From a bacterium (lineage in GTDB: Bacteria; Planctomycetota; UBA1135; GCA-002686595): 39,316 nt of DNA. The notes beneath the pieces were generated by a model. The model was not told the origin of the DNA and searched no databases. It worked only from the letters and a program-made list of their open reading frames with translations. The position numbers and the translations under genes are program-made. This document shows positions 1-15,907 of the stretch, in pieces (within the stretch, counting starts at the first letter, position 1; every line of letters begins with the position of its first letter). Location of the stretch: assembly GCA_024226735.1 (NCBI GenBank), contig JAAELL010000099.1, positions 1 to 39,316 on the forward strand, in the 5' to 3' direction.

Positions 1-3000
1 CTTCTGACCTCGGGCAAGACGAAAACCCAGGCAGACGTCGCGAGCCTCGGGCAAGTAGGCGAGGCGAAACGCCGCGCGCAGGCTGCGCGCAACGACGAGC
101 CACGAGCCGCCGCGGACGACGCGCCGGGACCCCTCTAGGCAAATGGGGTCCCACGCCCCGTCCCGATAGGCAGGGTTCGACAGCAGTTCGTCTCCGACAT
201 CCTCCACGTGGTCCAAGCACCACTCGTGCACGTTTCCCAGCATGTCGTAGAGTCCCCAGGAGTTTGGTCGCCGCTGTCGAACGGGATGCGTCCCGCCATC
301 GCTGTTCCCCGTGTGCCAACCGAGGCCATCCAAAGGCCCCTCGGGGTGATAGGTCGGGGTCGTGGTCCCGGCACGGCATGCGTGCTCCCATTCCGCTTCC
401 GTCGGGAGTCGGAAGACGCGCTCTCCGGAGCCAATGCGACTCGAGAGCGCTTCGCAAAACGAGCGCGCGTCCCCGTGCGAGACGGACGCTACCGGGTGTT
501 CCAGCCCCTGTTGGCCCTGGCTCGGATTCGACCCCATGACTCGCACCCATAGTGCCTGGGTGCACGGCGAGTCGGCCAACCAGTAGCCGCGGGACAGGAC
601 GACCTCGTGCAGATCCTCCTCACCGTATCGTCCCTCCTCGGACTCGGGAGATCCCATCAGGAACCTGCCGGGCGTGACCCACCGCAGGCGCTGCGTCACG
701 CCCTCGACGTCGAGATCCGCCCACAAGCCCATTTTATCGCGACCAAAGGCGTGCGCCCAGTCGGGTTGGACCAGGCTCTCGAAGCCCCATCGCCCCCGAT
801 CGGTCACGACGTGGAAGCTCGGCCGCCGCCCCCGCGGGATGTCGACGGCGCGTCCCGCGCCGCGCTCCACCCCGCTCTCGCTGGAGCGCACTTCCTGACC
901 TCGGGCAAGACGAAAACCCAGGCCGACGTCGCGAGCCCCGGGCAAGCTGGCGTCGCGAAACGCCGCGCGCAGGTGGCGCGCACCGTCGTCCCACGAGCCG
1001 CCGCGGAGGACGCGCCGGGACCCCCCTAGCGCCACCGGGTCGACCGCATCGATTCCCTGCAGGTCGTCCAGCGATCCGATGGCATCGGCGCACCACTCGT
1101 CGACGTTGCCAAGCATGTCGAACAGTCCGGCGGGGTTGGGAGCGAGCTTAGCAACCGAATGCACCGTCCGGCCTGCGTTGCCTGCATACCACCCAATGGG
1201 CGCCAGGACGCTCGCCGCCGAGCCCTCGTCGAAGTCGCCGGCGTACGAAGCGGCCGTCGTGCCGGCGCGACACGCCATCTCCCACTCCGCCTCCGTCGGG
1301 AGTCGAAAGGAGGTCCCATCGTCGACCGTCGACTCCCCGACCTTCCGCAGAAACGACTCGACGTCCCGGAAGGACACCCCCGTGACCGGCCGGCCGGCGC
1401 CGCGACGGCTCGGATCCCGCCCTGTCACCGCTATCCACAACTCCTGGGTACACGGCGTATCGGCGAGCCAGTAGCCACGCGTGACCTCGACCTCGTGCTG
1501 CGGTTCGTCGTCCCATCGCCCCCACTCGTCCTTCGGCGACCCCATCGTGAACCGTCCGGGCGCGAACCACCGGAACCGCTGCGACACCTCTCCCTGGTGC
1601 CAATCGGCCCAGGGCCCAAACCGGTCGAACCCGAAGTCGTCGGCCCAGTCCGGTCGTTCGACCGGCGCGGGCCCCGGGACCGCGGCCGGCAGGCCGAAAC
1701 GCTCCTCTCCGCCAGCCTCGACGACCCGCAGGTCGCCGCCCGCCGAGCCGAGTTGCAGGGCGATGGCCGGCTCGCGGAACTCGACGACACCCAACGGACT
1801 CCCGGAGCCCCCGATCGGTTCGGCCGACGGCGCACAGACCAGCGCCCCCCCGACCTGCCGCAGCAACCAACGCACCGCGGGAAGCCGCGCGTCGCCGGTC
1901 GCCGCGATGGGATCCACGCCCGACGGGACGCGGGTCTTCCTATCCGATCCGTGCACCGCGCGCCATGCGCGTCCCAGGGCACGACCAACGACCGGGTCCC
2001 GCCACACATCGTCCGTCGCGCGCAGGGTCAGACGGCGGAAGTAGGCGTCGTTGCCGGGCAGGTCATCCTGCCGATCGGCCAACCCGGCGGCTAGCCGCAA
2101 GAAGAAGTCGCGCGCGGCGCCCAGAGCGTCCTGCGCGACCGCCCCGGGGTGCTCGGCGGCCAGGCCCAGCACCTCCTCGTGTCCGATCTCCGGGGGCAGG
2201 GCCGCATGCCAACGCCGGATCTCGAGCCAAACGGCGTCGCGCAACCCCGCGGGCTCGCGCGCCCACTGCCGATGCAACACCCGTCGCAGCTCCGGCGCCA
2301 GGACGAGTCCGGTCGAGCTGCCCCGCACGCCCTGGTGACGCCAGACGTCGCACTCGGTGCCGACGTCCGCCCGCTCGGCGGAGAGCGCCAGGCGCGCCGC
2401 ACGCAGCAAACCCGGTTCGACGCGGACGGCGGGCGCCAGCAGCCGCAAGAGCTGCCGCACCGGGTTCTCGCGGTCCGCGCCCACCCGCTTCCCCCGATCC
2501 CAGACCCGCGCCTTCCACACCCGCGCCGTGCGGTCGTCGATACGCTCGAGGGGACACGGGGCGAGAGCGTGGATGCGGTAGCCCCGGTTCACGAGCCGCT
2601 CGCCGTACCGCCGCCACGCCCGCTGCAGGGCACCGGACCCGTACCCACCGAGGTCCCCCAGCAGGAGCACCGGTGTGCGATGCGCCGGCGGAGGTAGCTT
2701 GCTGTGCATCCCGCCGCGATGCAGGGGCTCGAAACCGGGACCGTCGAGGAATACCCACAGCTCGACCGCCCGCGGACCGAAGGCTCGCTCTACCCGAGCG
2801 ACGAACCGATCCTGGTCCTCCCAGAACGGGGTGAGGCGGCGGCCGCGGTCGACGAGGATCCAGAGTTGGTTGGCGGGCGCGGGGCGCATCTCGCGCGGCA
2901 ACCGCCGGATGTGCCGGCCACGGCTCAACTCCTCGACAAGGCGCGGCACGTCCACGTTCTCGCGCGCGAGATCGCGGCGGGCGGACTCGCGCACCCAGCG

Positions 3001-3366
3001 CCACACGCGCGGCCACGGCTCGAGCGGCACCCGGTCGGGAAAGCTGTCCGCGGCCGGTCTCAGCTCTGCCGAGCGCACCGGGTCGTACTCGAGCTCCTTC
3101 TCGGGCTCGCGCGGCTCGTCGTCGCTCGTCTCGGGTGCTTCGAAACGATCGAGCCGCCACAGGGGAAGATCCGCGTCGACCACCTCCGGCAACTCCCACT
3201 GGGGCAGCGGCACAGCGTCGGCCTCGACCTGAACCGTGCGGGCGCTCGAGTCACGATCCGCCGAAGGCCCGGTGAACCCGATCAAACGCGCGGCCGCACC
3301 CGCGACCTCGGGCCCGACGGCGTCGTGAATGCGGACCAGATCGCCGCGCCAAATGCGAGCGTTCAC
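1..3366 (-). CDS. vWA-like protein with two C-terminal FGE-sulfatase/C-type-lectin-fold domains (3' end outside window)
   Basis: This is an uninterrupted frame of 1122 codons from a GTG at 3366, which overlaps the MoxR stop (GTGA), to the window edge. Residues about 165-282 look like a von Willebrand A domain (NQLWILVDRGRR), but the DxSxS metal site is degenerate. After a helical middle come two FGE-sulfatase domains (about 597-822 and 895-1122). Both have the family signatures FRLPTEAEWE, LGNVxEWC, RVxRGGSW and LGFRLARGQ. The two cysteines that make formylglycine in true FGE are missing: after GGSW the residues are DDGARH in domain 1 and LVVARS in domain 2. A binding role is therefore more likely than FGE chemistry. 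Each domain ends in a DGR-like variable region. As the last gene of the conflict operon it is probably the sensor or recruiter. Domain identities come from motif recognition only. Confidence 0.85.
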   Translation of the reverse strand, partial: MNARIWRGDLVRIHDAVGPEVAGAAARLIGFTGPSADRDSSARTVQVEADAVPLPQWELPEVVDADLPLWRLDRFEAPETSDDEPREPEKELEYDPVRSAELRPAADSFPDRVPLEPWPRVWRWVRESARRDLARENVDVPRLVEELSRGRHIRRLPREMRPAPANQLWILVDRGRRLTPFWEDQDRFVARVERAFGPRAVELWVFLDGPGFEPLHRGGMHSKLPPPAHRTPVLLLGDLGGYGSGALQRAWRRYGERLVNRGYRIHALAPCPLERIDDRTARVWKARVWDRGKRVGADRENPVRQLLRLLAPAVRVEPGLLRAARLALSAERADVGTECDVWRHQGVRGSSTGLVLAPELRRVLHRQWAREPAGLRDAVWLEIRRWHAALPPEIGHEEVLGLAAEHPGAVAQDALGAARDFFLRLAAGLADRQDDLPGNDAYFRRLTLRATDDVWRDPVVGRALGRAWRAVHGSDRKTRVPSGVDPIAATGDARLPAVRWLLRQVGGALVCAPSAEPIGGSGSPLGVVEFREPAIALQLGSAGGDLRVVEAGGEERFGLPAAVPGPAPVERPDWADDFGFDRFGPWADWHQGEVSQRFRWFAPGRFTMGSPKDEWGRWDDEPQHEVEVTRGYWLADTPCTQELWIAVTGRDPSRRGAGRPVTGVSFRDVESFLRKVGESTVDDGTSFRLPTEAEWEMACRAGTTAASYAGDFDEGSAASVLAPIGWYAGNAGRTVHSVAKLAPNPAGLFDMLGNVDEWCADAIGSLDDLQGIDAVDPVALGGSRRVLRGGSWDDGARHLRAAFRDASLPGARDVGLGFRLARGQEVRSSESGVERGAGRAVDIPRGRRPSFHVVTDRGRWGFESLVQPDWAHAFGRDKMGLWADLDVEGVTQRLRWVTPGRFLMGSPESEEGRYGEEDLHEVVLSRGYWLADSPCTQALWVRVMGSNPSQGQQGLEHPVASVSHGDARSFCEALSSRIGSGERVFRLPTEAEWEHACRAGTTTPTYHPEGPLDGLGWHTGNSDGGTHPVRQRRPNSWGLYDMLGNVHEWCLDHVEDVGDELLSNPAYRDGAWDPICLEGSRRVVRGGSWLVVARSLRAAFRLAYLPEARDVCLGFRLARGQK
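4..138 (-). repeat. DGR-like variable region 2 (second FGE domain)
   Basis: This is a 135-bp segment, codons 1077-1121 of the vWA/FGE gene, aligned without gaps to 895-1029. 121 of 135 bases match. The 14 differences lie in first or second positions of ten codons and every one changes the amino acid. Variable residues here are E1078, V1084, L1090, V1091, V1092, S1095, L1102, Y1104, E1107 and C1112. A template with A at each variable site (AAC, AAT, ATC, GAG or AGC codons) explains both copies. The DNA upstream of this segment in the two domains is much more diverged, so the similarity is local. Confidence 0.8.
895..1029 (-). repeat. DGR-like variable region 1 (first FGE domain)
   Basis: This is the partner of 4-138, exactly 891 bp (297 codons) upstream in the same gene, covering residues 780-824. 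Variable residues are G781, L787, D793, D794, G795, H798, D805, S807, G810 and G815. They surround invariant framework residues (RGGSW, LRAAFR, LGFRLARGQ). In known DGR variable proteins with this fold the equivalent positions form the ligand-binding face. This copy is internal and is followed by a linker and a second domain; most variable regions sit at the extreme 3' end of a gene. Confidence 0.8.
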
Positions 3367-4370
3367 GCGCCGGATTCGTGAGGGTGCTTCTGGAACGTGA
3401 ATCGCGCGAAGCGCTCGAGCAGCTCGACCTGCTGGCTGGGCTTCCTGCCGTTGCCAGTCACGATCCGCAAGAGGTCGAGGTACTCGGCCTGGCCCGGGGG
3501 CGACCAGCCACGGTCCCGCACGGCGCGGCGGTCGTCGATCAACAGGGCCGCCGCCTTTTCCAGCACCCGTTTCTCGGCCCCGGGGAAATGCGCCCGGCCA
3601 CGATCACACAGCAGGCTCGCGAGCTCGTCGTCGTCGCTCGGCAACGCCAACGTCAGCACGAGACAGCGCCGCAGGAACGCGTCGGGTAGCGCCCGTTCCT
3701 CGTTCGTCGTGATCACGACGAGCGGGGCCGCCTCGGGGTTCATCCGCACGCGCTGCGTCGAGCCGCGCGGCCGGAACTCACCGTGGCCCAACACCTCGAG
3801 CAGGCCGTTGGGTACGTCGGAGTCCGCCTTGTCGATCTCATCGATCAGGACGACGACGCCGTCCTTGTTCGGGTTCCATTTCGAGGGCGGCTCGATGCTG
3901 GCTAGCGCGCCCTCTTCGGAGCACGAGCTCGCCCGTGACTCGGAGTCCGCTCGACCGTGTCGCGCGGCCGACTTCCAGTCGAACCCCCACCAGAGCACGC
4001 CCGGCCGGACGAAGTGCCGCTCGTCGAGCCGATCCATGACATCTTCGGTCGACGATCGCATGGCGCTCAGCATTTGCGCCGTTCCGAGACGCGCGACGTC
4101 GTCGAAGCTCCACAGGAGGTCACGCGATTCGACGCGGGCGTCCATCACGTGTGCGACGCACGGCCGGCCGAGCTCGACCGCGGCCGCGAAAGCGAGTTGG
4201 CTCTTGCCCGTGCCGGGCTCGCCGCGGACCAACAGTGGCCTACGGGCACCGAGGGCCGCCTCGATCGCGAACGCTGAGTCCTCGTCGAAGACGTGCACCT
4301 GCTCGGGGAAAGCGCCGCGCTTCGGCAACTGAACCTTGGCGCCGGCTCGGATGCGGGCAGTCTTCGTCAT
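3363..4370 (-). CDS. MoxR-family AAA+ ATPase
   Basis: This 335-residue ATPase has Walker A GEPGTGKS (residues 50-57), Walker B VLIDEID (about 174-180), a sensor-1 segment ITTNEERALPDAF and the following arginine pair. These fit the MoxR branch, whose members act as chaperone-like remodelers paired with vWA proteins. The ATG at 4370 overlaps the upstream protease stop (ATGA), and its own stop overlaps the GTG of the vWA gene, so the three products are translationally coupled. In vWA-MoxR-VMAP conflict systems this ATPase is thought to act as an NTP-driven switch between sensor and effector. That role is taken from the published family description and is not shown here. Confidence 0.92.
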   Translation of the reverse strand: MTKTARIRAGAKVQLPKRGAFPEQVHVFDEDSAFAIEAALGARRPLLVRGEPGTGKSQLAFAAAVELGRPCVAHVMDARVESRDLLWSFDDVARLGTAQMLSAMRSSTEDVMDRLDERHFVRPGVLWWGFDWKSAARHGRADSESRASSCSEEGALASIEPPSKWNPNKDGVVVLIDEIDKADSDVPNGLLEVLGHGEFRPRGSTQRVRMNPEAAPLVVITTNEERALPDAFLRRCLVLTLALPSDDDELASLLCDRGRAHFPGAEKRVLEKAAALLIDDRRAVRDRGWSPPGQAEYLDLLRIVTGNGRKPSQQVELLERFARFTFQKHPHESGA

Positions 4371-5812
4371 CGGGATCTCTTGGAGTCCTTGTCTCGGGTA
4401 AGCAGCGATCTTAGCGGAATCGAAACCTGTTCCCACTCCCGGCCGCGGTCGTCACTCGTCAGCTCCAGGATGCGGAGCTGCGGGAACCGCCTCTTCACTT
4501 CCGCCCACTCGGCACTTCTACGCCGGCCGTCCTCGGGTCGGTGCAAGACCACGTAGACGGGTAACCGATCGGGGTAGGCGCGCGACGCCAGCACGTTGAG
4601 CTCGGCCTTGATCCGCTCCTCTCGTTTGCTCCCTGATTCGCTCACCTTGAGATAGCTAGCGAGGTCCGCAATCAGTTTGTCGATCAGGCGACCCGGCGTG
4701 ATCCCCGAATCGATGATCTCCGGGTCCTCGATCCGCGCGACCCCCACGGGGTCCTCGCCCTCGTCGGGCTCGCCGAACCGCGTTGCACGCTCGTCGGCCG
4801 CCGCCATGACGACTTCGGCCAGCGTTTGGGTCGCTACCGGGATGGCGATCAGCCCTGGCGACGAACGGGTCTGGCGCCGAACGCCGTACGCGATACCGCG
4901 GTCGAAGAGCAGTGGCATGATGAGATCCAGAACCGTACGCAGCGCAGCGGCATCGTCGTTCCTCGCGAGCCTGCAGAGGCGTGCGTGCGCGTTGTTGACA
5001 ACGGCGATCGCGTCGGCGAGGTCCAGCCCCTCGAGCACGGCAGTCGACAAGAAGCCGGGATCCTCGGCCGAGCCACTCACAGGCTCCTTCTGTCCAGCAC
5101 GCAACACGGTCCGCGCCAGCTCCCGGCAAGCGTGCGGCGCTCCCTCCAGCTTGGCCTCAATCTCCAGGCGCACGTCCTGAAGCAGCTCCTCACGCTCCCA
5201 CTCGTCCCAGCCGACGGTCTTGCGGAAACCGGGACGCTCGAGCAACGCGGCCGTGGTCAGCGCGCGCAGCCGTCCCCCACGAAACGGCTGGGGAGCCTGC
5301 AGAATCATCGCGACGAGTCGACCGTTGGCGAGGACAGGTGCGCCCGAACATCCGCGCCACCCCTCCTGAGCCGGTGCGCCTTCGACGGAGAGGTCCTGGC
5401 GCCCGTCCGTGGCCTCGAACAGCTTGCCCTGCAGCGACAGCACCTGCCACGTGTCGAGCTCGTCCGGGGCCGTCTTCAGATTGGCGACCGGATAGCCCAT
5501 GCCGGTCCATTCCGTGGCGGGCAGCTCGACCTGGGACGACATCAGCACCGGTGTTGGAGGCGGCCCGTCGATCGGCGGCAGACGCAAGAGGACCGCGTCG
5601 ATGTCGTCGTTCTCCCAAGCGATCTCGACATCGAGCCACGGGCGGACGCCGACATGAAAACGGACCTGGACCGCATCCAGTGGATCGTCCCCAGAGGGCG
5701 CGATAACGTGGCGTGCGGTGAGGCAGAGCCCGTCGGCCACGAGGATGCCGGTGCCGATCGAATGCTCGCCGTCGCTGTGGGCGTAGACGATAACGAGACC
5801 ATCCCAGATCAT
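4367..5812 (-). CDS. Trypsin-like serine protease with VMAP-like C-terminal region
   Basis: This is a 481-residue protein. Residues 1-190 form a trypsin-like domain with a complete triad: H35 in LTARHVI, D72 in DDIDAVLLRL and S156 in GCSGAPV. There is no signal peptide, so it should be cytoplasmic, as expected for an effector that cuts host proteins. The remaining 290 residues contain a helical middle part and an alpha/beta tail (PVYVVLHRPEDG, then LRILELTSDD) that resembles the C-terminal module of VMAP proteins. The start is the ATG at 5812, with a GAGGGG ribosome-binding site just upstream and a 7-nt gap to the previous stop. It is paralogous to the preceding gene. The VMAP assignment is by context and pattern only. 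Confidence 0.82.
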   Translation of the reverse strand: MIWDGLVIVYAHSDGEHSIGTGILVADGLCLTARHVIAPSGDDPLDAVQVRFHVGVRPWLDVEIAWENDDIDAVLLRLPPIDGPPPTPVLMSSQVELPATEWTGMGYPVANLKTAPDELDTWQVLSLQGKLFEATDGRQDLSVEGAPAQEGWRGCSGAPVLANGRLVAMILQAPQPFRGGRLRALTTAALLERPGFRKTVGWDEWEREELLQDVRLEIEAKLEGAPHACRELARTVLRAGQKEPVSGSAEDPGFLSTAVLEGLDLADAIAVVNNAHARLCRLARNDDAAALRTVLDLIMPLLFDRGIAYGVRRQTRSSPGLIAIPVATQTLAEVVMAAADERATRFGEPDEGEDPVGVARIEDPEIIDSGITPGRLIDKLIADLASYLKVSESGSKREERIKAELNVLASRAYPDRLPVYVVLHRPEDGRRRSAEWAEVKRRFPQLRILELTSDDRGREWEQVSIPLRSLLTRDKDSKRSR

Positions 5813-5819
5813 TCGCCCC

Positions 5820-7319
5820 TCAATTCTTCCTATTCTCGCGTGCGATCAAACGCTTGAACAACGCGACGACCTCGTGCTCACCGACGAAGCCCTCACCAGT
5901 CAGGCGGATGAAGCGCAGCTCGGGACAGAGCCCTTGGAGGGCGCCGAGCTGCTCCATGAAGCGATCGGGCAGGGACGTCGTCGGAAAGACCAGATAGACG
6001 GGAGCCTCGTCGGACAACTCCTTGAGCCGAACGGCCAACTCCGCGTTCAGTGACTCGAGGTACGGCGCAAGAGCCTCGGGCGAAACATCAGGGTTTGGAT
6101 CGTCCAAGTAGAAGTGGAGTGTCTCCTGCTGCAGCTTGTCCGCGAGAAAGCGCAGGACGTCCGCCACCAGGGTGCCGGACTTGGCACCCTTCAAGACCAA
6201 CGAGAGAGGTGGACAGTACTCCCCGCGGGGCGCGCCCTCGACGACGTCGAAGTTGGCCGCGGTGCCCGTCGCGCCCGAGATGACGGCTTCGGCTCCGAAG
6301 GCTGTCGCCACGGAGATGCGAAAGACCGGTGCGCCTGCATCGGAGGTATCCAGCTTGATTACGATTCCCTGTCGATGAGCAATGACCGGTACGAGGTCCG
6401 AGAACAGGTCCCAAAACGCTCCCTTGTGTTCTGGATTCTCCAGCAACTTCAACCACGCTGGTTGCACGGTCTCGAGCTCCAACAAGTACTCATGTAACCC
6501 CTGTTTGACGATCTTCTCGACGAGCCTCCGCGTCCGGCCTAGGCCTTCGAAGTCCTTCAGGTCGGCGTACCGATCGAGCGCGAGGTAGCACGCCTCGAGG
6601 GCCCTGTGGTCACGCAACACCTTTTCGGCGTGGGTGACCAGGTCCACCGTCGTGCGCTCACCCTGGACGAAGCCGTCGCCGTGACTGTCGTCCAGAATCC
6701 GCGCGAGCTCCTCGATCTCGAGCAGGTCGCCAACGTCGCGGACCTCGACGCCGGCACTAGAATCGGCGTAGCCGACGATTCCCACGACCCGGTCATCGAT
6801 GACCGCCCCCGCGCCGACGAGCGCGCGCCAAACTTCATTGTCACGATCGGAACGAACGAAGCGCACGACGTCCGCCTCGTCGACGACACACTCCCCTTTG
6901 GCCTCGACCAGCGAGAAGGGTTGATCGTCAGGCTGCCGGCCCGAGACCGACTGTCCCGTGGCACGCCAGGAACCGCCCTCGATCGTCCCCTCGTACAAGG
7001 GCGTGAACGAGATCTCGGGCTGGGATGCGGCGATCTCGAGCAACGCGACCCCGTCGTGTCGATCACTCCCGTACCAGACGTCGACGACGTCAAGCCAATC
7101 TGACACTCCCTCGTCCCACGCGTTCGCCGTCGGCTGGTCGGAGAAGCGCACCTGGAGTGGCCTGTCCGTATCCCGTTCCAGAGCACCTCGCACGTGCAGG
7201 GCGCCAGCAGCCGTCAACAGATGGCGCGACGAAACCGGCTGCGCCGAGAGGTACAACCAATACCCGGACTCCCTCAGCGGCACCCGTAACTGGACGCGGA
7301 GGCCGTGCGTCATCGACAC
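5820..7319 (-). CDS. Pseudo-protease (trypsin-like fold) with VMAP-like C-terminal region
   Basis: This 499-residue protein aligns along its length with the following active protease. The first 190 residues keep the trypsin layout, but the catalytic His is Gly (G39 in HLLTAAGAL) and the Ser position is Val (V168 in WRALVGAGAV, against WRGCSGAPV in the neighbour). Asp89 is kept. Proteolysis is therefore unlikely. The tail (PVYLVFPTTSLPDRF, then LRFIRLTGEG) parallels the neighbour's tail. It may regulate or scaffold the active protease (inference). The start may be the GTG at 7319 or the ATG two codons later at 7313; no clear Shine-Dalgarno separates them. Confidence 0.72.
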   Translation of the reverse strand: MSMTHGLRVQLRVPLRESGYWLYLSAQPVSSRHLLTAAGALHVRGALERDTDRPLQVRFSDQPTANAWDEGVSDWLDVVDVWYGSDRHDGVALLEIAASQPEISFTPLYEGTIEGGSWRATGQSVSGRQPDDQPFSLVEAKGECVVDEADVVRFVRSDRDNEVWRALVGAGAVIDDRVVGIVGYADSSAGVEVRDVGDLLEIEELARILDDSHGDGFVQGERTTVDLVTHAEKVLRDHRALEACYLALDRYADLKDFEGLGRTRRLVEKIVKQGLHEYLLELETVQPAWLKLLENPEHKGAFWDLFSDLVPVIAHRQGIVIKLDTSDAGAPVFRISVATAFGAEAVISGATGTAANFDVVEGAPRGEYCPPLSLVLKGAKSGTLVADVLRFLADKLQQETLHFYLDDPNPDVSPEALAPYLESLNAELAVRLKELSDEAPVYLVFPTTSLPDRFMEQLGALQGLCPELRFIRLTGEGFVGEHEVVALFKRLIARENRKN

Positions 7320-7326
7320 GAACCGC

Positions 7327-7635
7327 TCAACCCGGCCTGCCCGCGGCGGACGCGGCGATGTTTGCCGCGCCGCCCCCGGCCAACTTGGGGTGCAGCGTGA
7401 TCTTCAAGGTCTGGCGCTGCGAGTGCGCGAACTCTTCACCGACGCCCGCCTGCAGGACCCAGAACTTCACCCCCACTTCGCCCTGCTCCTTCGATTCGAC
7501 GGCGACCTGAACCTCGAGCTCGACGTCGCCGAGCTCGAAGCGTAACGGCTCGTCGTCGCCCTCCTCCATTGCCGTCAGGAGCTCCCGCCGCAGGGATTGG
7601 ATCATGCTCGCAAGTTCAAGCTGCCGTCTCTCCAT
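7327..7635 (-). CDS. Trypco2-like (trypsin-co-occurring) small protein
   Basis: This is a 102-residue protein with an N-terminal helix (ASMIQSLRRELLTAMEEG) followed by strands (LRFELGDVELEVQVAV, then GVKFWVLQAG) and a basic C-terminal strand (QTLKITLHP). The order and the phrases fit the trypsin-co-occurring domain 2 family, which is found next to trypsin-like conflict effectors. It is the first gene of the operon, 7 nt from the next start. The ATG at 7635 has no obvious Shine-Dalgarno. A TATAGT hexamer lies a few bases before it, so leaderless transcription is possible. The family name rests on recall of the consensus; the exact role is unknown. Confidence 0.75.
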   Translation of the reverse strand: MERRQLELASMIQSLRRELLTAMEEGDDEPLRFELGDVELEVQVAVESKEQGEVGVKFWVLQAGVGEEFAHSQRQTLKITLHPKLAGGGAANIAASAAGRPG

Positions 7636-7980
7636 TCGCGTGACTATAGCAACTGATCCGCGCCGCGATCGCCATCGACGAACGTCAGCACCGGCCGTAG
7701 GGAATCGCAAAAGGCACACGTCCCATCCAGATTGAAGACCACCGGATGGTACACGCCGCCTCGCCATTCCCCGGCTCCGCCGACCGCGAATCGGGGCGCG
7801 GTGATGGGCAAGCGGCCGCACGTGTGCGCGGCGCGTTCAAAACGTAAGACGCACGCCGAGCAAGAAGCCAAGCAGCGCAACGTCGATATCACTCTCCCGA
7901 ATGTCCTCCTCGGTCTCGGAGAGAACCAAGAGATAGTGCCCTCCCCCGACAACGGAAAAGTGCTCGTTCACGGACTAGTA

Positions 7981-8009
7981 CTAGTGGTGTGAGTCACTCA
8001 CACCACTAG
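7981..8009. repeat. Perfect inverted repeat with 3-nt loop
   Basis: The arms ctagtggtgtgag (7981-7993) and ctcacaccactag (7997-8009) are exact reverse complements around the loop tca. An extra actagt lies at the left edge (7975-7986 reads actagtactagt). The element sits inside the beta-barrel pseudogene and brings an in-frame stop on the minus strand, so it looks inserted. There is no U-tract, so a terminator is unlikely. A 17-mer across the arm and loop recurs with one mismatch at 39198-39214. Confidence 0.8.
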
Positions 8010-11414: not shown

Positions 11415-12479
11415 TCAGCTCGGGAGCAACTCCGCGATCGACGCGGCCCCGTCGCCAGGACCGGCCCGCAGACGAGCGAGCCGCTCGTCCAGCCACGATT
11501 CCGCTGACACGTCCGGGTAGCGCGCTGCCACCAAGGCTTCGATCCGCCCGCGCGTGTGCGCCACGATCAGAACGCTGAGCAGGAAGCGCAGCTCGGGATC
11601 GTCGGTCGCATCGCGTGCCCGCACGAGCCTGCTCGTACGACGCTCGTGGCGAATGGTCGCGACGAGCTGCCGGACGAGCGCGTCGTCTCCGGCGAAGGCG
11701 CGCCTCAAGATGGCGTTGAGGTCGCTCGCGCGGCCCCGAAACGAGGAGCTCGTCGCCAGCACGAGCTCGACGGCCTCGTCCGCTTCGACGCGTCCGAGCA
11801 GATCCTCCAGACTCCCGTCGAAACCCGCGTGCTCGATCCGCGCGAGAAAGCCGAGGACCTGCACGCGACGGACCTGCTGCTCGCGCAGGTGCGGCGGAAC
11901 GTTGGGCGCCAACGCCAGACCTGGAGGCAAGTAGTAGAACTGCGGCACCGACCACGGCACCGGCGCGCGCACGATGAGCGAGACGGTGGGCTGGTCCAGA
12001 TGGAGCAAGGAGTGGATGAGCTCCTCGCCGGGCTCGATCCGGCGGACGTCGCCCGGCGCGAGCAGCTCGGCCTCGGCCAGCTCCAGCGCGCCGATCCGCA
12101 GGCGATCCCCGCGGTCCTCCGAGCGCCGAAAGGTGTAGTGAGCGTGGAGGCTCGAACCCGCGAGGACGCTGAACACCCCGGTGAACGCATGCTCGTGGAT
12201 CGCCGTCGAGCCCGACAGCCAGTAGATGACCTCGATCGTGAACCTGTCGCTCTTGTAGACCGTCACCGGAGGATGACCGAACGCTGCCGGCAGGTCCGTT
12301 TGCGGCGGCAGAATCGATGCGCTCAGAACCCACTGCGCGGCGTCGAAGGCGCCCAGGGGCTCGCGATCGGTCTCGGCGAGGCCGAGCTCGGCAACCTCCG
12401 CGAAGGCCGCGATCTCGTAGCGCCGCTCGCGCCAGCGTCGATCGATCCTATCCGCCAATCGTTGGATGCTCTCCATCAC
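11415..12479 (-). CDS. Cupin-like hypothetical protein
   Basis: This is a 354-residue protein. The middle has a cupin/cysteine-dioxygenase-like pattern: an HxH pair in STAIHEHAFTGVFSVLAGS, and about 55 residues later a His in EPGEELIHSLLHLDQP. The usual cupin Glu is absent, so any metal site would be three-His. The last 150 residues are helical and rich in Leu and Arg, with no family I recognise. It starts at ATG 12479 or the next ATG at 12476 and is divergent from the M3 peptidase, sharing a 124-bp intergenic region. It could be a tailoring enzyme or a sensor for the adjacent pathway; the function is unassigned. Confidence 0.7.
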   Translation of the reverse strand: MMESIQRLADRIDRRWRERRYEIAAFAEVAELGLAETDREPLGAFDAAQWVLSASILPPQTDLPAAFGHPPVTVYKSDRFTIEVIYWLSGSTAIHEHAFTGVFSVLAGSSLHAHYTFRRSEDRGDRLRIGALELAEAELLAPGDVRRIEPGEELIHSLLHLDQPTVSLIVRAPVPWSVPQFYYLPPGLALAPNVPPHLREQQVRRVQVLGFLARIEHAGFDGSLEDLLGRVEADEAVELVLATSSSFRGRASDLNAILRRAFAGDDALVRQLVATIRHERRTSRLVRARDATDDPELRFLLSVLIVAHTRGRIEALVAARYPDVSAESWLDERLARLRAGPGDGAASIAELLPS

Positions 12480-12590
12480 GACTTCGGCCGCAAGCGCGGT
12501 CGCTTGATGCCCATTTTATCACATGGCAGCATAAGCGTTCGAAGCAACTGTCGGGACCGCCAGGCCCCGCGATCGTCGATCCGGCCAGCT

Positions 12591-12595
12591 AGGAG
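12591..12595 (+). promoter_or_regulatory. Shine-Dalgarno that fixes a TTG start
   Basis: AGGAG lies 8 nt before the TTG at 12604. No ATG or GTG in this frame is as well placed, so TTG is taken as the start of the M3 peptidase. Confidence 0.7.
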
Positions 12596-12603
12596 ATTGC
12601 AAT

Positions 12604-14298
12604 TTGAGTTCCGCCGCCCGCTTCGACGAGCTGCCCTGTTCACGACCCGACGCTCGAGAGCTACGGGAGGAGTCGCAGGCCTTGCTCGCCGCTTTCGAGT
12701 CAGCGGCGAATGCACACGCTCGGGCCGACGTCGTCCGGCGCTGGGACCGGTCGCAGATCCGCTACGAGTCCCAGCGTGCCCTGGCACGCATCCGCCACTG
12801 CCTGGACACTCGGAGCGAGGAACGCCGCGCCGACGAGGACGCCTTCCAGGAGCTCGACACCGAAGTGTCCGAGCTCAACCAACGGTTCGTGACCCGGCTG
12901 CTCTCGTCCCCGGGGCGCGCGGAGCTCGAGACGGAGCTCGGCCCCCAAGCCTTCGCGATCTGGGATCAGTGGCTCACGACCTTCGACCCCGCCATCCGGA
13001 GCGAGCTGCAGGCCGAATCGAAGCTGCGCGGCCGGTACGAGGAGCTCCTCGCGGACACGCGCATCGAGGCGCGCGGGGAGGAGCACTCGCTCTCCTCGAT
13101 CCGGCGGCTCATCGGCCATCGCATGCGCGATCTCCGGCTCGACGCGCGCCGCGCCATGGACGCCGCTCTCGAGGCCCAGCGCGAAGAGCTGGACACGCTC
13201 TTCGAGGAGCTGCTCGCACTGCGCCACGGCATGGCGACGCGACTGGGTTTCGACAGTTTCACGCCACTCGCCTACCGGCGGTTGCGACGCACCGACTACG
13301 GGCCGGACGAGGTGGCCAAGTTCCGCGCGGAGGTGCGGGAGGTCGTCGTGCCGCTCGCCCACCGGCTGCACAGCCAGCGTGCCGCGTCCCTCGGTCTGTT
13401 CGACTACGGGTTCCACGACGAGGCCGTGCGCGACGATGCGCGGGGCGCCCCCAAGCCCTGCGTCGACGCCGAGTCGATGCTGACGGTCACGAAGGACGTA
13501 CTCGGGGACTTCAGCCCCGCGTTCGCCGAGTTCTTCGAGATGATGGCAGCCCGCGGTCTCATCGACCTGACGAGCCGACCGGGCAAGATCACGGGCGGCT
13601 TGCTCGAAGCGCTCCCCGAACACGGCGTGCCCTTCATCCTGGCGAACTTCAACGGCACCCAGGTCGACGTCAGCGTCCTGCTGCACGAGTCGGGACACGC
13701 CTTCCAGTTCTGGAGCGCACGCGACCAGCCCCTCAGGGACTACTTCTGGCCCTCCAACGAGGCGTGCGAGATTCCCTCGACGGGTCTCGAGCTGCTCGCC
13801 CTGCCCTACATGGAGCGCTTCTTCGGCGCGGACGCCGACCGGTTCCGCACCGGTTACCTCGAGGGCACGGTCGTGGCCATGACGTGGGACCTGGCCGTGG
13901 ACGAGTTCCAGCACCGCGTCTACGCGGAGCCGAGCCTCGGACCGGCCGAGTGGGGCCGGCTGTACCGCGACATCGAGAGCGCGTGGCAGCCGTGGCGACG
14001 CTACTCCGCGATGCCGTACTTCGAGAGCGGCAGGGCCTGGCAGCTCTACTCGCAGGTGTACCGCGAGCCGTTCTATGGGATCGACTACTCGCTGGCACTC
14101 ATCTGCGCACTGCAGCTCTGGTGCCGCGCCCAGCGCGATCGGGACGCCGCGCTCGAACAGTACCAGCGGTTGTGCGAGCTCGGCGGCTCGCTTCCCTTCA
14201 CGGGCCTGCTCTCCGAGGTCGGGCTCGACAGCCCGTTCGAGAGCGGCACGGTGGCCAGGGTGATCGGGGAGGTCGAGCGGTTCCTCGCGCTCGACTGA
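12604..14298 (+). CDS. M3-family zinc oligopeptidase (PepF-like)
   Basis: This 564-residue protein has the zinc motif HESGH (H361, E362, H365, in LLHESGHAFQFW) and a downstream Glu ligand candidate in NEACEIPSTGLELL. The length and the order of the helical N-terminal region, HExxH and C-terminal helices fit M3B oligoendopeptidases. There is no signal peptide, so it is cytoplasmic. M3 enzymes cut peptides of roughly 5-20 residues. Beside the RiPP-like operon it is a candidate for degrading the removed leader or trimming the product (inference). It converges on the 2OG-oxygenase fusion with a 13-bp gap between stops. Confidence 0.9.
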   Translation: MSSAARFDELPCSRPDARELREESQALLAAFESAANAHARADVVRRWDRSQIRYESQRALARIRHCLDTRSEERRADEDAFQELDTEVSELNQRFVTRLLSSPGRAELETELGPQAFAIWDQWLTTFDPAIRSELQAESKLRGRYEELLADTRIEARGEEHSLSSIRRLIGHRMRDLRLDARRAMDAALEAQREELDTLFEELLALRHGMATRLGFDSFTPLAYRRLRRTDYGPDEVAKFRAEVREVVVPLAHRLHSQRAASLGLFDYGFHDEAVRDDARGAPKPCVDAESMLTVTKDVLGDFSPAFAEFFEMMAARGLIDLTSRPGKITGGLLEALPEHGVPFILANFNGTQVDVSVLLHESGHAFQFWSARDQPLRDYFWPSNEACEIPSTGLELLALPYMERFFGADADRFRTGYLEGTVVAMTWDLAVDEFQHRVYAEPSLGPAEWGRLYRDIESAWQPWRRYSAMPYFESGRAWQLYSQVYREPFYGIDYSLALICALQLWCRAQRDRDAALEQYQRLCELGGSLPFTGLLSEVGLDSPFESGTVARVIGEVERFLALD

Positions 14299-14311
14299 CG
14301 CGTGCGATGCG

Positions 14312-15907
14312 TCACGTGCCGTGGCGCCTCCACCACCCGTTGACGCACAGTCGCTTGCCGGTCGCGGCGGCGGCGACCGAGCGGACGCAGTGCTGCGAGT
14401 CCTGGGAGACGTTGAAGAGGCTGAGCGTATTGAACGACGGCCGCAGCTCGTGCCCCGTCGGTGCCCAGAACAGTCCTCCTCCCCACTCGCGCGGCCAGTC
14501 CTTCGTCAGGTGCCAGACGAACGCGACCTGTCGCTCGCCGTCGCGATCGTTGTGCGCCGTCGAGTGGTCGCCCGGCCTGTAGTGGCTTGCGGACAGCGCG
14601 ACCTCGCCATCGCAATCGCGGCCCGAGAGGGCGCTCGCCCAGCGGCGCGTCGCGGGGCTGCCGAAGACGAGGAACGCCGTCAGGAGCGACGGCGGATAGT
14701 GACTGAGCTCGTAGACGTTGTGGTGGCGGTACGAGAACGGGGTCGGCCCCGGGTAGGTCCCCTCGTGCAGCTTCCACGCCGTGCAGCGATCGAGATCCTC
14801 CCAGACGGCTTGCGCGAAGTCCGCGCGCAGAGCGTCATGAATCGTCACGAGCTCGCCGGCCTCCAGCGCGGCCCTGACGTCGGCCAACCGGCGCGAGTCG
14901 TCACGAATGCCGGGGTCGAGGTACGTGGTCAGGCTCGAGTGCTCGGACTCCTCGGAGCCGATCCACGTGGCCCACGCACCCGGCACGCGCTCGGTTCCGA
15001 TGGCGCGAGGCGAACCGACGATCCGTTGCCAGCAGAGCGGAAGCCCGCCCGCGAACATCCTTTCCGCCACGCTCCGTGCAAAGCGCTCCAGCACCTCGCG
15101 TCGGCCGCGGTAGACGAGCGTGCACATCGCACGAGCCAGGCTCGCGCGTTGCGCCTCGTCGAGCGCCAGGCCCGCTCCGTGTGGCCCACCGCTGGAGCAA
15201 TCGAACGCTCTCCGGGTCGGCGGCAGTGCGAGCGGACCGGCGCGCAACCGCTCGCCGAGCGCCACGACCGGCAACAGGGGAACGTCCGCACGCGCTGCCT
15301 CGTCACGCAGCGATGAGAGCGCGGACCACGGGGCCCCCTCGAGAGCGGCAACCAGGAAGTCGACGCCCGCCAGGGGACTCGGCCCGCAGGCGCGGTCGGG
15401 CGGCGGCGCAGGGGGCAGCTCCCGGTTGGAGAAGATCAGGTGTCGCTCGCGCGCGGCACGGCACTCCGCTTCCGAAGAGACCCCGAGCCACGGTCCGTTC
15501 AACCGGCGAACCGTCGCCCAGCGCCGCAGCTCGCCTGCGACGGCGTCCGCCATCGCCCCATGGCCGACGACCAGCACACTCGCGGCTCGCATCCGCGCGG
15601 GAGCGATCGGCACCTCGCCCGAGGCCCGCTCGAGCGCGCGCTCGTTCGTACGCTCGAGAACGCCGGCCTTCAGCAAGGCTCTCGCGAGGGCTCGCGTCCG
15701 GCGCGGCGCGGACTGGGTCAGCCAACCCGCCCCACCGCCGTCCTGGGCGGCGCGCAAGACGGCGCGTAGGTCGGCGGTCGCACCGAGCGCGCACGCGTAC
15801 CGTCCGCGCTCGTGATGGAGCACGAGGCGACCGCCGATCCGGAACACGTCGAGCTGCGGGTTCACGCGGATCGCCCCGCGCTCGAAGGGATCAGCGCTCG
15901 AGGACAT
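14312..15907 (-). CDS. PqqD-like / Rossmann (ThiF-like) / 2OG-Fe(II) oxygenase fusion
   Basis: This 531-residue protein has three parts. Residues about 10-85 resemble a PqqD-type RiPP recognition element (FRIGGRLVLHHERGRYACAL, then a helix ending LLKAGVLE). Residues about 100-250 begin with ASVLVVGHGAMADAVAGEL, a Rossmann nucleotide-binding start like the ThiF/YcaO-partner proteins of azole RiPPs. The C-terminal part from about 340 is a 2OG-Fe(II) oxygenase with H452 and D454 (HND), distal H506 and R519 (GKRLCVNGWW), matching prolyl-hydroxylase-type enzymes. All three iron ligands and the 2OG arginine are present. The ATG at 15907 overlaps the deiminase stop by 17 nt. It probably hydroxylates a residue of the peptide (inference). 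Confidence 0.78.
   Translation of the reverse strand: MSSSADPFERGAIRVNPQLDVFRIGGRLVLHHERGRYACALGATADLRAVLRAAQDGGGAGWLTQSAPRRTRALARALLKAGVLERTNERALERASGEVPIAPARMRAASVLVVGHGAMADAVAGELRRWATVRRLNGPWLGVSSEAECRAARERHLIFSNRELPPAPPPDRACGPSPLAGVDFLVAALEGAPWSALSSLRDEAARADVPLLPVVALGERLRAGPLALPPTRRAFDCSSGGPHGAGLALDEAQRASLARAMCTLVYRGRREVLERFARSVAERMFAGGLPLCWQRIVGSPRAIGTERVPGAWATWIGSEESEHSSLTTYLDPGIRDDSRRLADVRAALEAGELVTIHDALRADFAQAVWEDLDRCTAWKLHEGTYPGPTPFSYRHHNVYELSHYPPSLLTAFLVFGSPATRRWASALSGRDCDGEVALSASHYRPGDHSTAHNDRDGERQVAFVWHLTKDWPREWGGGLFWAPTGHELRPSFNTLSLFNVSQDSQHCVRSVAAAATGKRLCVNGWWRRHGT

What the first reader, a model, noticed from the sequence alone, without database searches (positions are those of the whole stretch)
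4..1029. Two DGR-type variable regions inside one gene
Segments 4-138 and 895-1029 align without gaps: 121/135 bases match, and all 14 differences are at first or second positions of ten codons, all non-silent. Most variable codons are NNC or NNT, such as gac/ctc, gac/gtc, ggt/gtt, cac/agc and agc/tac. The flanking codons are identical even at third positions, while the rest of the two FGE domains is diverged in DNA. Adenine-specific mutation from a template carrying AAC/AAT/ATC/GAG/AGC codons explains every site. Two variable regions in tandem domains of one sensor protein, one internal, is unusual and would allow two-site recognition.
Basis: partly seen in the sequence, partly recalled or inferred. 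Interest (0 to 1): 0.93.

Follow-up and report, generated by a model that had tools for sequence, protein, structure and literature searches.

The report
Sensor gene with two hypermutated sites
One bacterial gene carries two 125-base segments that match a single template elsewhere in the genome at every base except where the template has an adenine, so a reverse transcriptase likely rewrites both recognition sites of what is predicted to be a defence sensor; this is a clear new case of a known kind of system.

Summary
The window is a whole contig (C99). The missing parts lie on contig C98 of the same genome: an HRDC accessory gene, a DGR-type reverse transcriptase (IGAVTSQ, YMDD), a template repeat (TR) and a second FGE target gene. 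Against the 125-base TR core, VRa (9-133) differs at 15 sites and VRb (900-1024) at 13. All 28 are at TR adenines, and none of the other 105 positions differs. The C98 target (10 sites) and an FGE gene on contig C122 (15 sites) behave the same way, so one TR fits four VRs in three genes. The window gene follows a MoxR-type ATPase, a trypsin-like protease and Trypco2, the known setting of DGR-diversified "ternary" conflict systems. Several VRs in one target gene are already in print (Marichromatium; Thiohalocapsa), so this is a new member, not a new kind. I add three things: the tandem two-VR gene recurs with contiguous TR and RT in three other genomes; across 53 aligned family members the two VRs agree as if co-templated; and one VR beside its own complete DGR carries the other DGR's template. 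Activity, ligand and defence role are untested. C98-C99 adjacency is inferred.

The parts
1..3366 (-). DGR target gene, at least 1122 aa (3' end beyond the contig): N-terminal extension plus two tandem FGE/C-type-lectin domains
   Evidence: Open frame to the contig edge; Pfam FGE-sulfatase 1e-79, 2 stretches; AlphaFold mean pLDDT 82
9..133 (-). VRa, variable region of FGE domain 2 (repeat reported as 4-138)
   Evidence: 125 nt against the C98 TR: 15 substitutions, all at TR A, 0 elsewhere
900..1024 (-). VRb, internal variable region of FGE domain 1 (repeat reported as 895-1029)
   Evidence: 125 nt against the C98 TR: 13 substitutions, all at TR A, 0 elsewhere
1..714 (-). FGE / C-type-lectin domain 2 (residues about 885-1122)
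901..1563 (-). FGE / C-type-lectin domain 1 (Pfam residues 602-822)
2485..2898 (-). vWA-like Rossmann part of the N-terminal extension (about residues 157-294), tentative
6..14 (-). 3' anchor of VRa: CCCGAG followed by GTC (TR has CCCGAG followed by CGC)
   Evidence: Sequence; same kind of TR/VR contrast in relatives
897..905 (-). 3' anchor of VRb: CCCGAG followed by GTC
   Evidence: Sequence
862..889 (.). 8-bp perfect inverted repeat (862-869 / 882-889, 12-nt loop) just 3' of VRb, candidate target-site hairpin
   Evidence: Read from the sequence; not tested further
3363..4436 (-). MoxR-type AAA+ ATPase gene, directly upstream of the target
   Evidence: AAA_5 9e-11; bpMoxR 2e-4, below its cut-off
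4367..5812 (-). trypsin-like peptidase gene, candidate effector
   Evidence: Trypsin_2 7e-9; N-terminal similarity to the Avs1b protease
5820..7319 (-). 499-aa gene of unknown family in the same array
   Evidence: No match in Pfam, NCBIfam or PADLOC at the limits used
7327..7821 (-). Trypco2 (trypsin-co-occurring domain 2) gene
   Evidence: PF19631 4e-26

Best explanation
Both FGE (C-type-lectin) domains of the window gene end in a variable region that equals the template repeat on contig C98 at all 105 non-adenine positions of the 125-base core and differs only at template adenines, so an HRDC-type diversity-generating retroelement likely writes adenine-mutagenised cDNA of that single template into both. 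Shown: the template, reverse transcriptase and accessory gene in the same genome; 28 of 28 substitutions at adenines; third codon positions untouched; no stop codon reachable; the VR end (CGAGGTC) differs from the TR end (CGAGCGC) as recipient and donor should. Inferred: that C98 lies directly downstream of the window gene, that the element still works, that the two lectin domains bind foreign ligands, and that binding is passed through the MoxR ATPase to the trypsin-like protease of the same array.
For: TR-VR counts: 15/15, 13/13, 10/10 (C98 target) and 15/15 (C122 target) substitutions at A, 0 elsewhere. RT with IGAVTSQ and YMDD and HRDC PF00570 3e-19 on C98. The held assembly has five copies of the 15-nt anchor TTCGTCTTGCCCGAG: the TR and these four VRs. 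About 1.9e11 protein variants per VR and 0 stop-reachable codons. The same gene order on one contiguous contig in a Thermoanaerobaculia MAG (L053): trypsin-like (Trypsin_2 1e-4, below its cut-off), MoxR-type, tandem-FGE gene with two VRs, HRDC, RT, TR, short FGE gene with a VR. Two-VR genes upstream of RT and TR also in L112 and L152. In all four tandem-VR genes found, 0 of 37 third positions in the VR motif differ, while 35 of 87, 43 of 103, 31 of 145 and 10 of 106 shared residues upstream use another third base. In 53 of 57 aligned family members (4 dropped for gaps; the window protein included) constant VR positions agree within a protein 0.852 against 0.714 between proteins, 0 of 10000 permutations; excess 0.138 against 0.031 for entropy-matched non-VR sites, 0 of 200 sets. 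Best fold match is TvpA.
Against: No within-species or read-level variation could be examined, so current activity is not shown. C98 and C99 adjacency is not proven: no exact end overlap of 16-200 bases was found in the three end pairings tested. The VMAP protein itself was not found in the window array, and bpMoxR scores below its cut-off. The vWA reading of the N-terminus is tied with another fold by VIA-align. No PADLOC model hits the target. Two-VR genes are a minority: 3 of the 52 surveyed loci with a TR/VR pair.
Confidence: 0.93

Rival explanations
1. A recent tandem duplication or gene conversion between the two FGE domains, followed by diversifying selection on a ligand loop, without any retroelement.
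For: The domains are paralogous and gene conversion can homogenise short tracts; FGE proteins share the RGGSW...GFR motif in general.
Against: An outside template agrees with both copies at all 105 non-A sites and all 28 changes sit on its adenines. 0 of 37 third positions changed, against 35 of 87 shared residues upstream. Conversion would not mark adenines.
Confidence: 0.02
2. A DGR origin, but dead: the VRs are frozen products of past mutagenesis and the machinery no longer acts.
For: The assembly is fragmented; one decayed DGR relic exists on C116; no population data.
Against: The RT, HRDC and target frames on C98 and the target frame in the window are open; four VRs show 0 non-A differences from the TR over 105 sites each, so little ordinary drift has accumulated.
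Confidence: 0.15
3. The two VRs of the window gene are served by the C122 DGR (another complete element in the genome) rather than by C98.
For: C122 also has HRDC, RT, a TR and a MoxR-linked FGE target.
Against: The C122 TR gives no row in the window at the call's settings, and in L010 only itself and its own VR (12 A-substitutions, 1 other); the C98 TR matches perfectly off adenines.
Confidence: 0.05

Closest known systems
Clade 5A / DGR 8-type loci of multicellular bacteria (Thiohalocapsa PB-PSB1; Dore et al. 2024, PMC10907252; section 5 and passages seen)
   Different: Here the long target has two lectin domains, each with a VR. RT clade membership was not tested by a tree. The VR of C122's short target matches a foreign template although a complete DGR sits next to it; in the passages seen, the trans cases (DGR 4 and 5) are loci whose RT gene was replaced by repeats.
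Marichromatium purpuratum three-FGE target with three VRs (2012 DiGReF survey, PMC3521204; passages seen)
   Same: Tandem FGE-sulfatase units in one ORF, with three VRs
   Different: Those authors left open artefact or pseudogene; here the architecture recurs in other lineages with open frames and a contiguous TR and RT
VMAP ternary conflict systems with DGR-diversified vWA-FGS proteins (Kaur et al. 2020, PMC7159879; section 25 and passages seen)
   Same: MoxR ATPase, trypsin-like peptidase, Trypco2, FGS domain related to TvpA, associated DGR
   Different: No VMAP domain found here and the vWA identity of the N-terminus is only suggested by fold; two FGS domains
Treponema denticola TvpA DGR (structure 2y3c; PMC4891356, passages seen)
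   Different: The passages list seven VRs with target coordinates, so apparently one VR per target; no tandem-domain target was seen there

Membership tests
Diversity-generating retroelement (DGR) | TR/VR pair with substitutions confined to TR adenines | tested here: met
   28 of 28 in the two window VRs, 53 of 53 over all four VRs of this TR, 0 of 105 other sites in each
Diversity-generating retroelement (DGR) | RT with (I/V/L)GxxxSQ motif and YxDD | tested here: met
   IGAVTSQ and YMDD in the C98 RT; motif definition from PMC3521204 passages
Diversity-generating retroelement (DGR) | Accessory protein | tested here: met
   HRDC-domain gene overlapping the RT gene on C98, PF00570 3e-19; HRDC accessory known in T. 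denticola DGRs
Diversity-generating retroelement (DGR) | C-type-lectin (or Ig-like) target domain with the VR at the ligand face | tested here: met
Diversity-generating retroelement (DGR) | Donor and recipient ends differ (IMH* versus IMH, recalled terms) | tested here: met
   TR CGAGC (CGAGA in L111) versus VR CGAG(G/T)TC in C98/C99, C122, L047, L049, L053, L111, L135; L112 also differs there, with more changes
Diversity-generating retroelement (DGR) | Active diversification in a population | not testable with these tools
   No same-species genomes or reads available
MoxR ternary conflict system | MoxR-type AAA+ ATPase adjacent to the sensor | tested here: met
   AAA_5 9e-11 at window 3363-4436; bpMoxR 2e-4, below its cut-off
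MoxR ternary conflict system | vWA domain in the sensor | tested here: inconclusive
MoxR ternary conflict system | VMAP protein (VMAP-C/M domain) | tested here: inconclusive
   No Pfam VMAP match in the five array genes; one 499-aa gene unassigned
MoxR ternary conflict system | Trypsin-like effector with Trypco1/2 | tested here: met
   Trypsin_2 7e-9 and Trypco2 4e-26
Formylglycine-generating enzyme (catalytic) | Catalytic cysteine pair | not tested
   Fold shared; catalysis not examined

The most novel reading that the evidence does not exclude
Tandem-lectin, two-VR receptors are a widespread class of bivalent, antibody-like sensors whose two binding faces are rewritten together from one template, and separate DGRs in one cell form a shared template network: the C98 template, through a 13-base 3' anchor common to both templates, has overwritten a VR that sits beside another complete DGR.
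Probability: 0.4. Interest if true: 0.72.

Novelty: new member of a known kind. Interest (0 to 1): 0.5.

Why it matters
It gives a clean, checkable rule for a two-site diversified sensor: one 125-base template core, four recipients, 20 adenines, about 2e11 variants per site and so about 4e22 for the two-site gene. Multi-VR genes had been reported as cases or counts. Here the two-VR tandem-lectin architecture recurs in different lineages and its two VRs evolve in concert, which argues that two diversified sites are selected for and not an assembly artefact. The C122 case makes template exchange between co-resident DGRs a testable question.

Tried and rejected
Gene conversion or plain paralogy was rejected by the external template. 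The C122, C540 and C179 templates were tested and give no row in the window at the call's settings. Other RTs of the genome: no TR/VR pair was found in the fetched 8-14 kb around those on C227, C583, C519 and C116. C116 holds a decayed relic; C3 scored below cut-off and was not fetched.

My first motif scan of the 121 proteins used too strict a spacing and found only 1 with two motifs. With corrected spacing 82 of 121 have two or more, including P0001 and P0002, which are the same protein. RGGSW...GFR is common to FGE proteins, so that count alone does not prove VRs; hence the concerted-evolution tests and the DNA tests.

Searching the N-terminal extension in relatives gave few hits (4 of 151 and 5 of 392 genomes, own genome included in both). 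Of five loci fetched for these (L165-L169), none had a TR/VR pair or a two-motif ORF. A hairpin 3' of the VRs comparable to the phage one was not established; only one inverted repeat after VRb is noted. PADLOC gave no model for the target. Plasmid records gave 288 matches, all under 60% identity and none covering 80% of the protein.

Literature searches. Wu et al. 2018 is not held and was not read. I make no claim that co-homogenised VRs or cross-template use are absent from print.

Full report
WHAT WAS CLAIMED. Two 135-base segments at the left end of the window differ only at first and second codon positions and look like two variable regions (VRs) of a diversity-generating retroelement (DGR) inside one gene.

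THE OBSERVATION. It is as described. One ungapped direct repeat of 135 nt, copies 4-138 and 895-1029, is found. The gene is on the minus strand, starts near 3366 and runs off the left end of the contig with at least 1122 residues and two FGE-sulfatase stretches. The window is the whole contig C99 of a 612-contig, 9.0 Mb genome.

THE TEMPLATE. A search of the genome with VRb (40 of 143 first-look candidates scored) returned itself, VRa and three further strong matches at E below 1e-40, two on contig C98 and one on C122; the next match scored 7e-6. On C98 (8446 bp) the minus strand reads: HRDC gene (8244-7723 as an ORF; PF00570 3e-19), RT gene (7736-6732, IGAVTSQ and YMDD), template repeat (6705-6581) and a 323-residue FGE target gene (6500-5529) with its own VR (5733-5609). 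Against the 125-nt template core, which has 20 adenines, the substitutions are: VRa 15, VRb 13, C98 target 10, C122 FGE gene 15. All are at adenines, with none at the other 105 sites. Between any two of the four VRs 13 to 16 of the 20 adenine sites differ and nothing else does. The bases found at those 80 sites are G 28, A 27, T 20, C 5. No stop codon can be reached, and one VR can encode about 1.9e11 proteins. A 15-nt piece of the 3' anchor occurs five times in the held assembly: the template and the four VRs.

DIRECTION. In the C98/C99, C122, L047, L049, L053, L111 and L135 loci the template ends CGAG followed by C (A in L111), and the VRs end CGAG followed by G or T and then TC; L112 also differs between template and VRs at this place, with more changes. 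This is the donor/recipient difference expected of IMH* and IMH (recalled DGR biology).

GENE ARRAY. Upstream of the target in the window lie a MoxR-type AAA ATPase (3363-4436), a trypsin-like protease (4367-5812), a 499-aa gene of no known family (5820-7319) and Trypco2 (7327-7821). Kaur et al. 2020 (PMC7159879; section 25 and passages) describe such ternary systems with DGR-diversified FGS domains. Dore et al. 2024 (PMC10907252; section 5 and passages) describe DGR 8 and clade 5A loci with a MoxR ATPase, a long-extension target, a short lectin-only target, Trypco and trypsin neighbours, and propose the target as antigen sensor, untested. The present locus fits that description. No VMAP domain was detected here.

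IS THE TWO-VR GENE REAL ELSEWHERE? I took RT relatives from named genomes (10 loci) and unnamed ones (22 of 151 and 27 of 392 genomes matched, own genome included in both and some genomes shared). All 53 places listed outside this genome were fetched as stretches. One TR/VR finder was run over 71 loci, 8 of them from this genome. 52 of 71 gave a TR/VR pair (4 of the 8 own); three had two VRs in one ORF: L053, L112 and L152. The window gene is not in that count because its TR is on another contig. The finder allowed at most two non-A mismatches, so older VRs may be missed. Independently, ORFs with two FGE end motifs were sought in 77 sources: four were found (window, L053, L112, L152), and in all four the motif copies differ only at codon positions 1 and 2. 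Third positions: 0 of 37 differ in each, while the preceding FGE stretch shows 35 of 87, 43 of 103, 31 of 145 and 10 of 106 shared residues with another third base. L053, a Thermoanaerobaculia MAG, has the whole order on one contig: trypsin-like (below cut-off), MoxR-type, two-VR gene, HRDC, RT, TR, short FGE target. L112 has the two-VR gene, a 157-aa ORF of HRDC size (not tested), the RT and the TR in line. By that order C98 would lie directly left of the window. This is inference: no exact end overlap was found in the three pairings tested.

FAMILY-WIDE TEST. The protein search scored 7989 candidates, found 2717 proteins at E up to 1e-3, and listed 120. I aligned P0001 with 56 of them; 53 of 57 rows had no gap in either motif (4 dropped). 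Mean entropy at the template-adenine positions is 3.2 and 3.1 bits in the two domains, against 0.9 and 0.9 at the constant ones. Constant VR positions agree 0.852 within a protein and 0.714 between proteins (0 of 10000 permutations); the rest of the FGE domains 0.585 against 0.531. Against entropy-matched non-VR positions the excess is 0.138 versus 0.031, 0 of 200 sets as high; 48 of 53 proteins have a positive excess. This is what a common template for both VRs would do; for these proteins no DNA was examined, apart from the window's own.

CROSS-TEMPLATE USE. C122 holds a second complete DGR: MoxR-type ATPase, 995-aa FGE target, HRDC, RT, its own TR, and a short FGE gene. Its long target matches the C122 TR (12 A-substitutions of 28 A, 1 other), but the short gene's VR, next to that TR, matches the C98 TR (15 of 15 at A). 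The two templates share 13 bases at the 3' end (CGTCTTGCCCGAG) and the two C122 VRs share their 3' flank but for one base of the 22 shown. Trans action of a DGR is in print for loci that lost their RT (passages); here the recipient sits beside an intact one.

COMPARISON AND VERDICT. Multiple VRs in one target are known: 31 of 271 multi-VR DGRs (PMC6642488, passages), three VRs in a three-FGE ORF (PMC3521204, passages), three in one Thiohalocapsa target and 21 VRs in 15 targets. So the finding is true and well explained, a new member of a known kind. What is added is the complete template set, the recurrence and co-homogenisation of the two-VR tandem-lectin class, and the cross-template case. 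Not shown: activity, ligand, defence function, adjacency of C98, bivalent binding.

Noticed in passing
L009 8228-8413; window 7981-8009; genome-wide: The end motif CTAGTGGTGTGA(G/T)T of a palindromic MITE-like element occurs 377 times in this genome (two ends per full element; reversed-pattern control 0); more than 30 of the first 100 or so places listed lie within about 165 bases of a contig start. One copy sits just upstream of the C98 HRDC gene and the window holds a minimal 29-base palindromic copy.
   Followed up: partly
L009 6553-6576 (minus) and the matching places in L010, L049, L111, L112, L135: A hairpin of 7 or more pairs with a GGAT (or GGAC) loop lies 15-19 bases 3' of the TR in 6 of 52 loci and after 0 of 73 VRs by the same rule. 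On these six, chosen for having it, 6 of 8 pairs change on both sides and 93.8% of cells pair, 0 of 500 shuffles as high. Likely a structured part of the template RNA of this DGR's closest relatives.
   Followed up: partly
L010 6495-6619 versus TR at L010 7500-7626: The short FGE gene of the C122 DGR has a VR that matches the C98 template, not the complete DGR next to it.
   Followed up: partly
L011 (C179) and L013 (C540): Two further DGRs in the genome, with a SIR2-NACHT-FGE target (C179) and two convergent NACHT-FGE targets served by one TR (C540; one of them with DUF4062).
   Followed up: no
L016 5423-7192: A decayed DGR relic on C116, read by eye: a NACHT-like remnant and the first half of a DGR-type RT in one open frame, with a template-like remnant in the next frame (RT match).
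   Followed up: no
window 2485-2898: The long N-terminal extension of this target family may hide a degenerate vWA domain, which would fit its MoxR partner.
   Followed up: partly
window 11556-14582: A 1008-residue open frame with no Pfam match at E 0.01.
   Followed up: no
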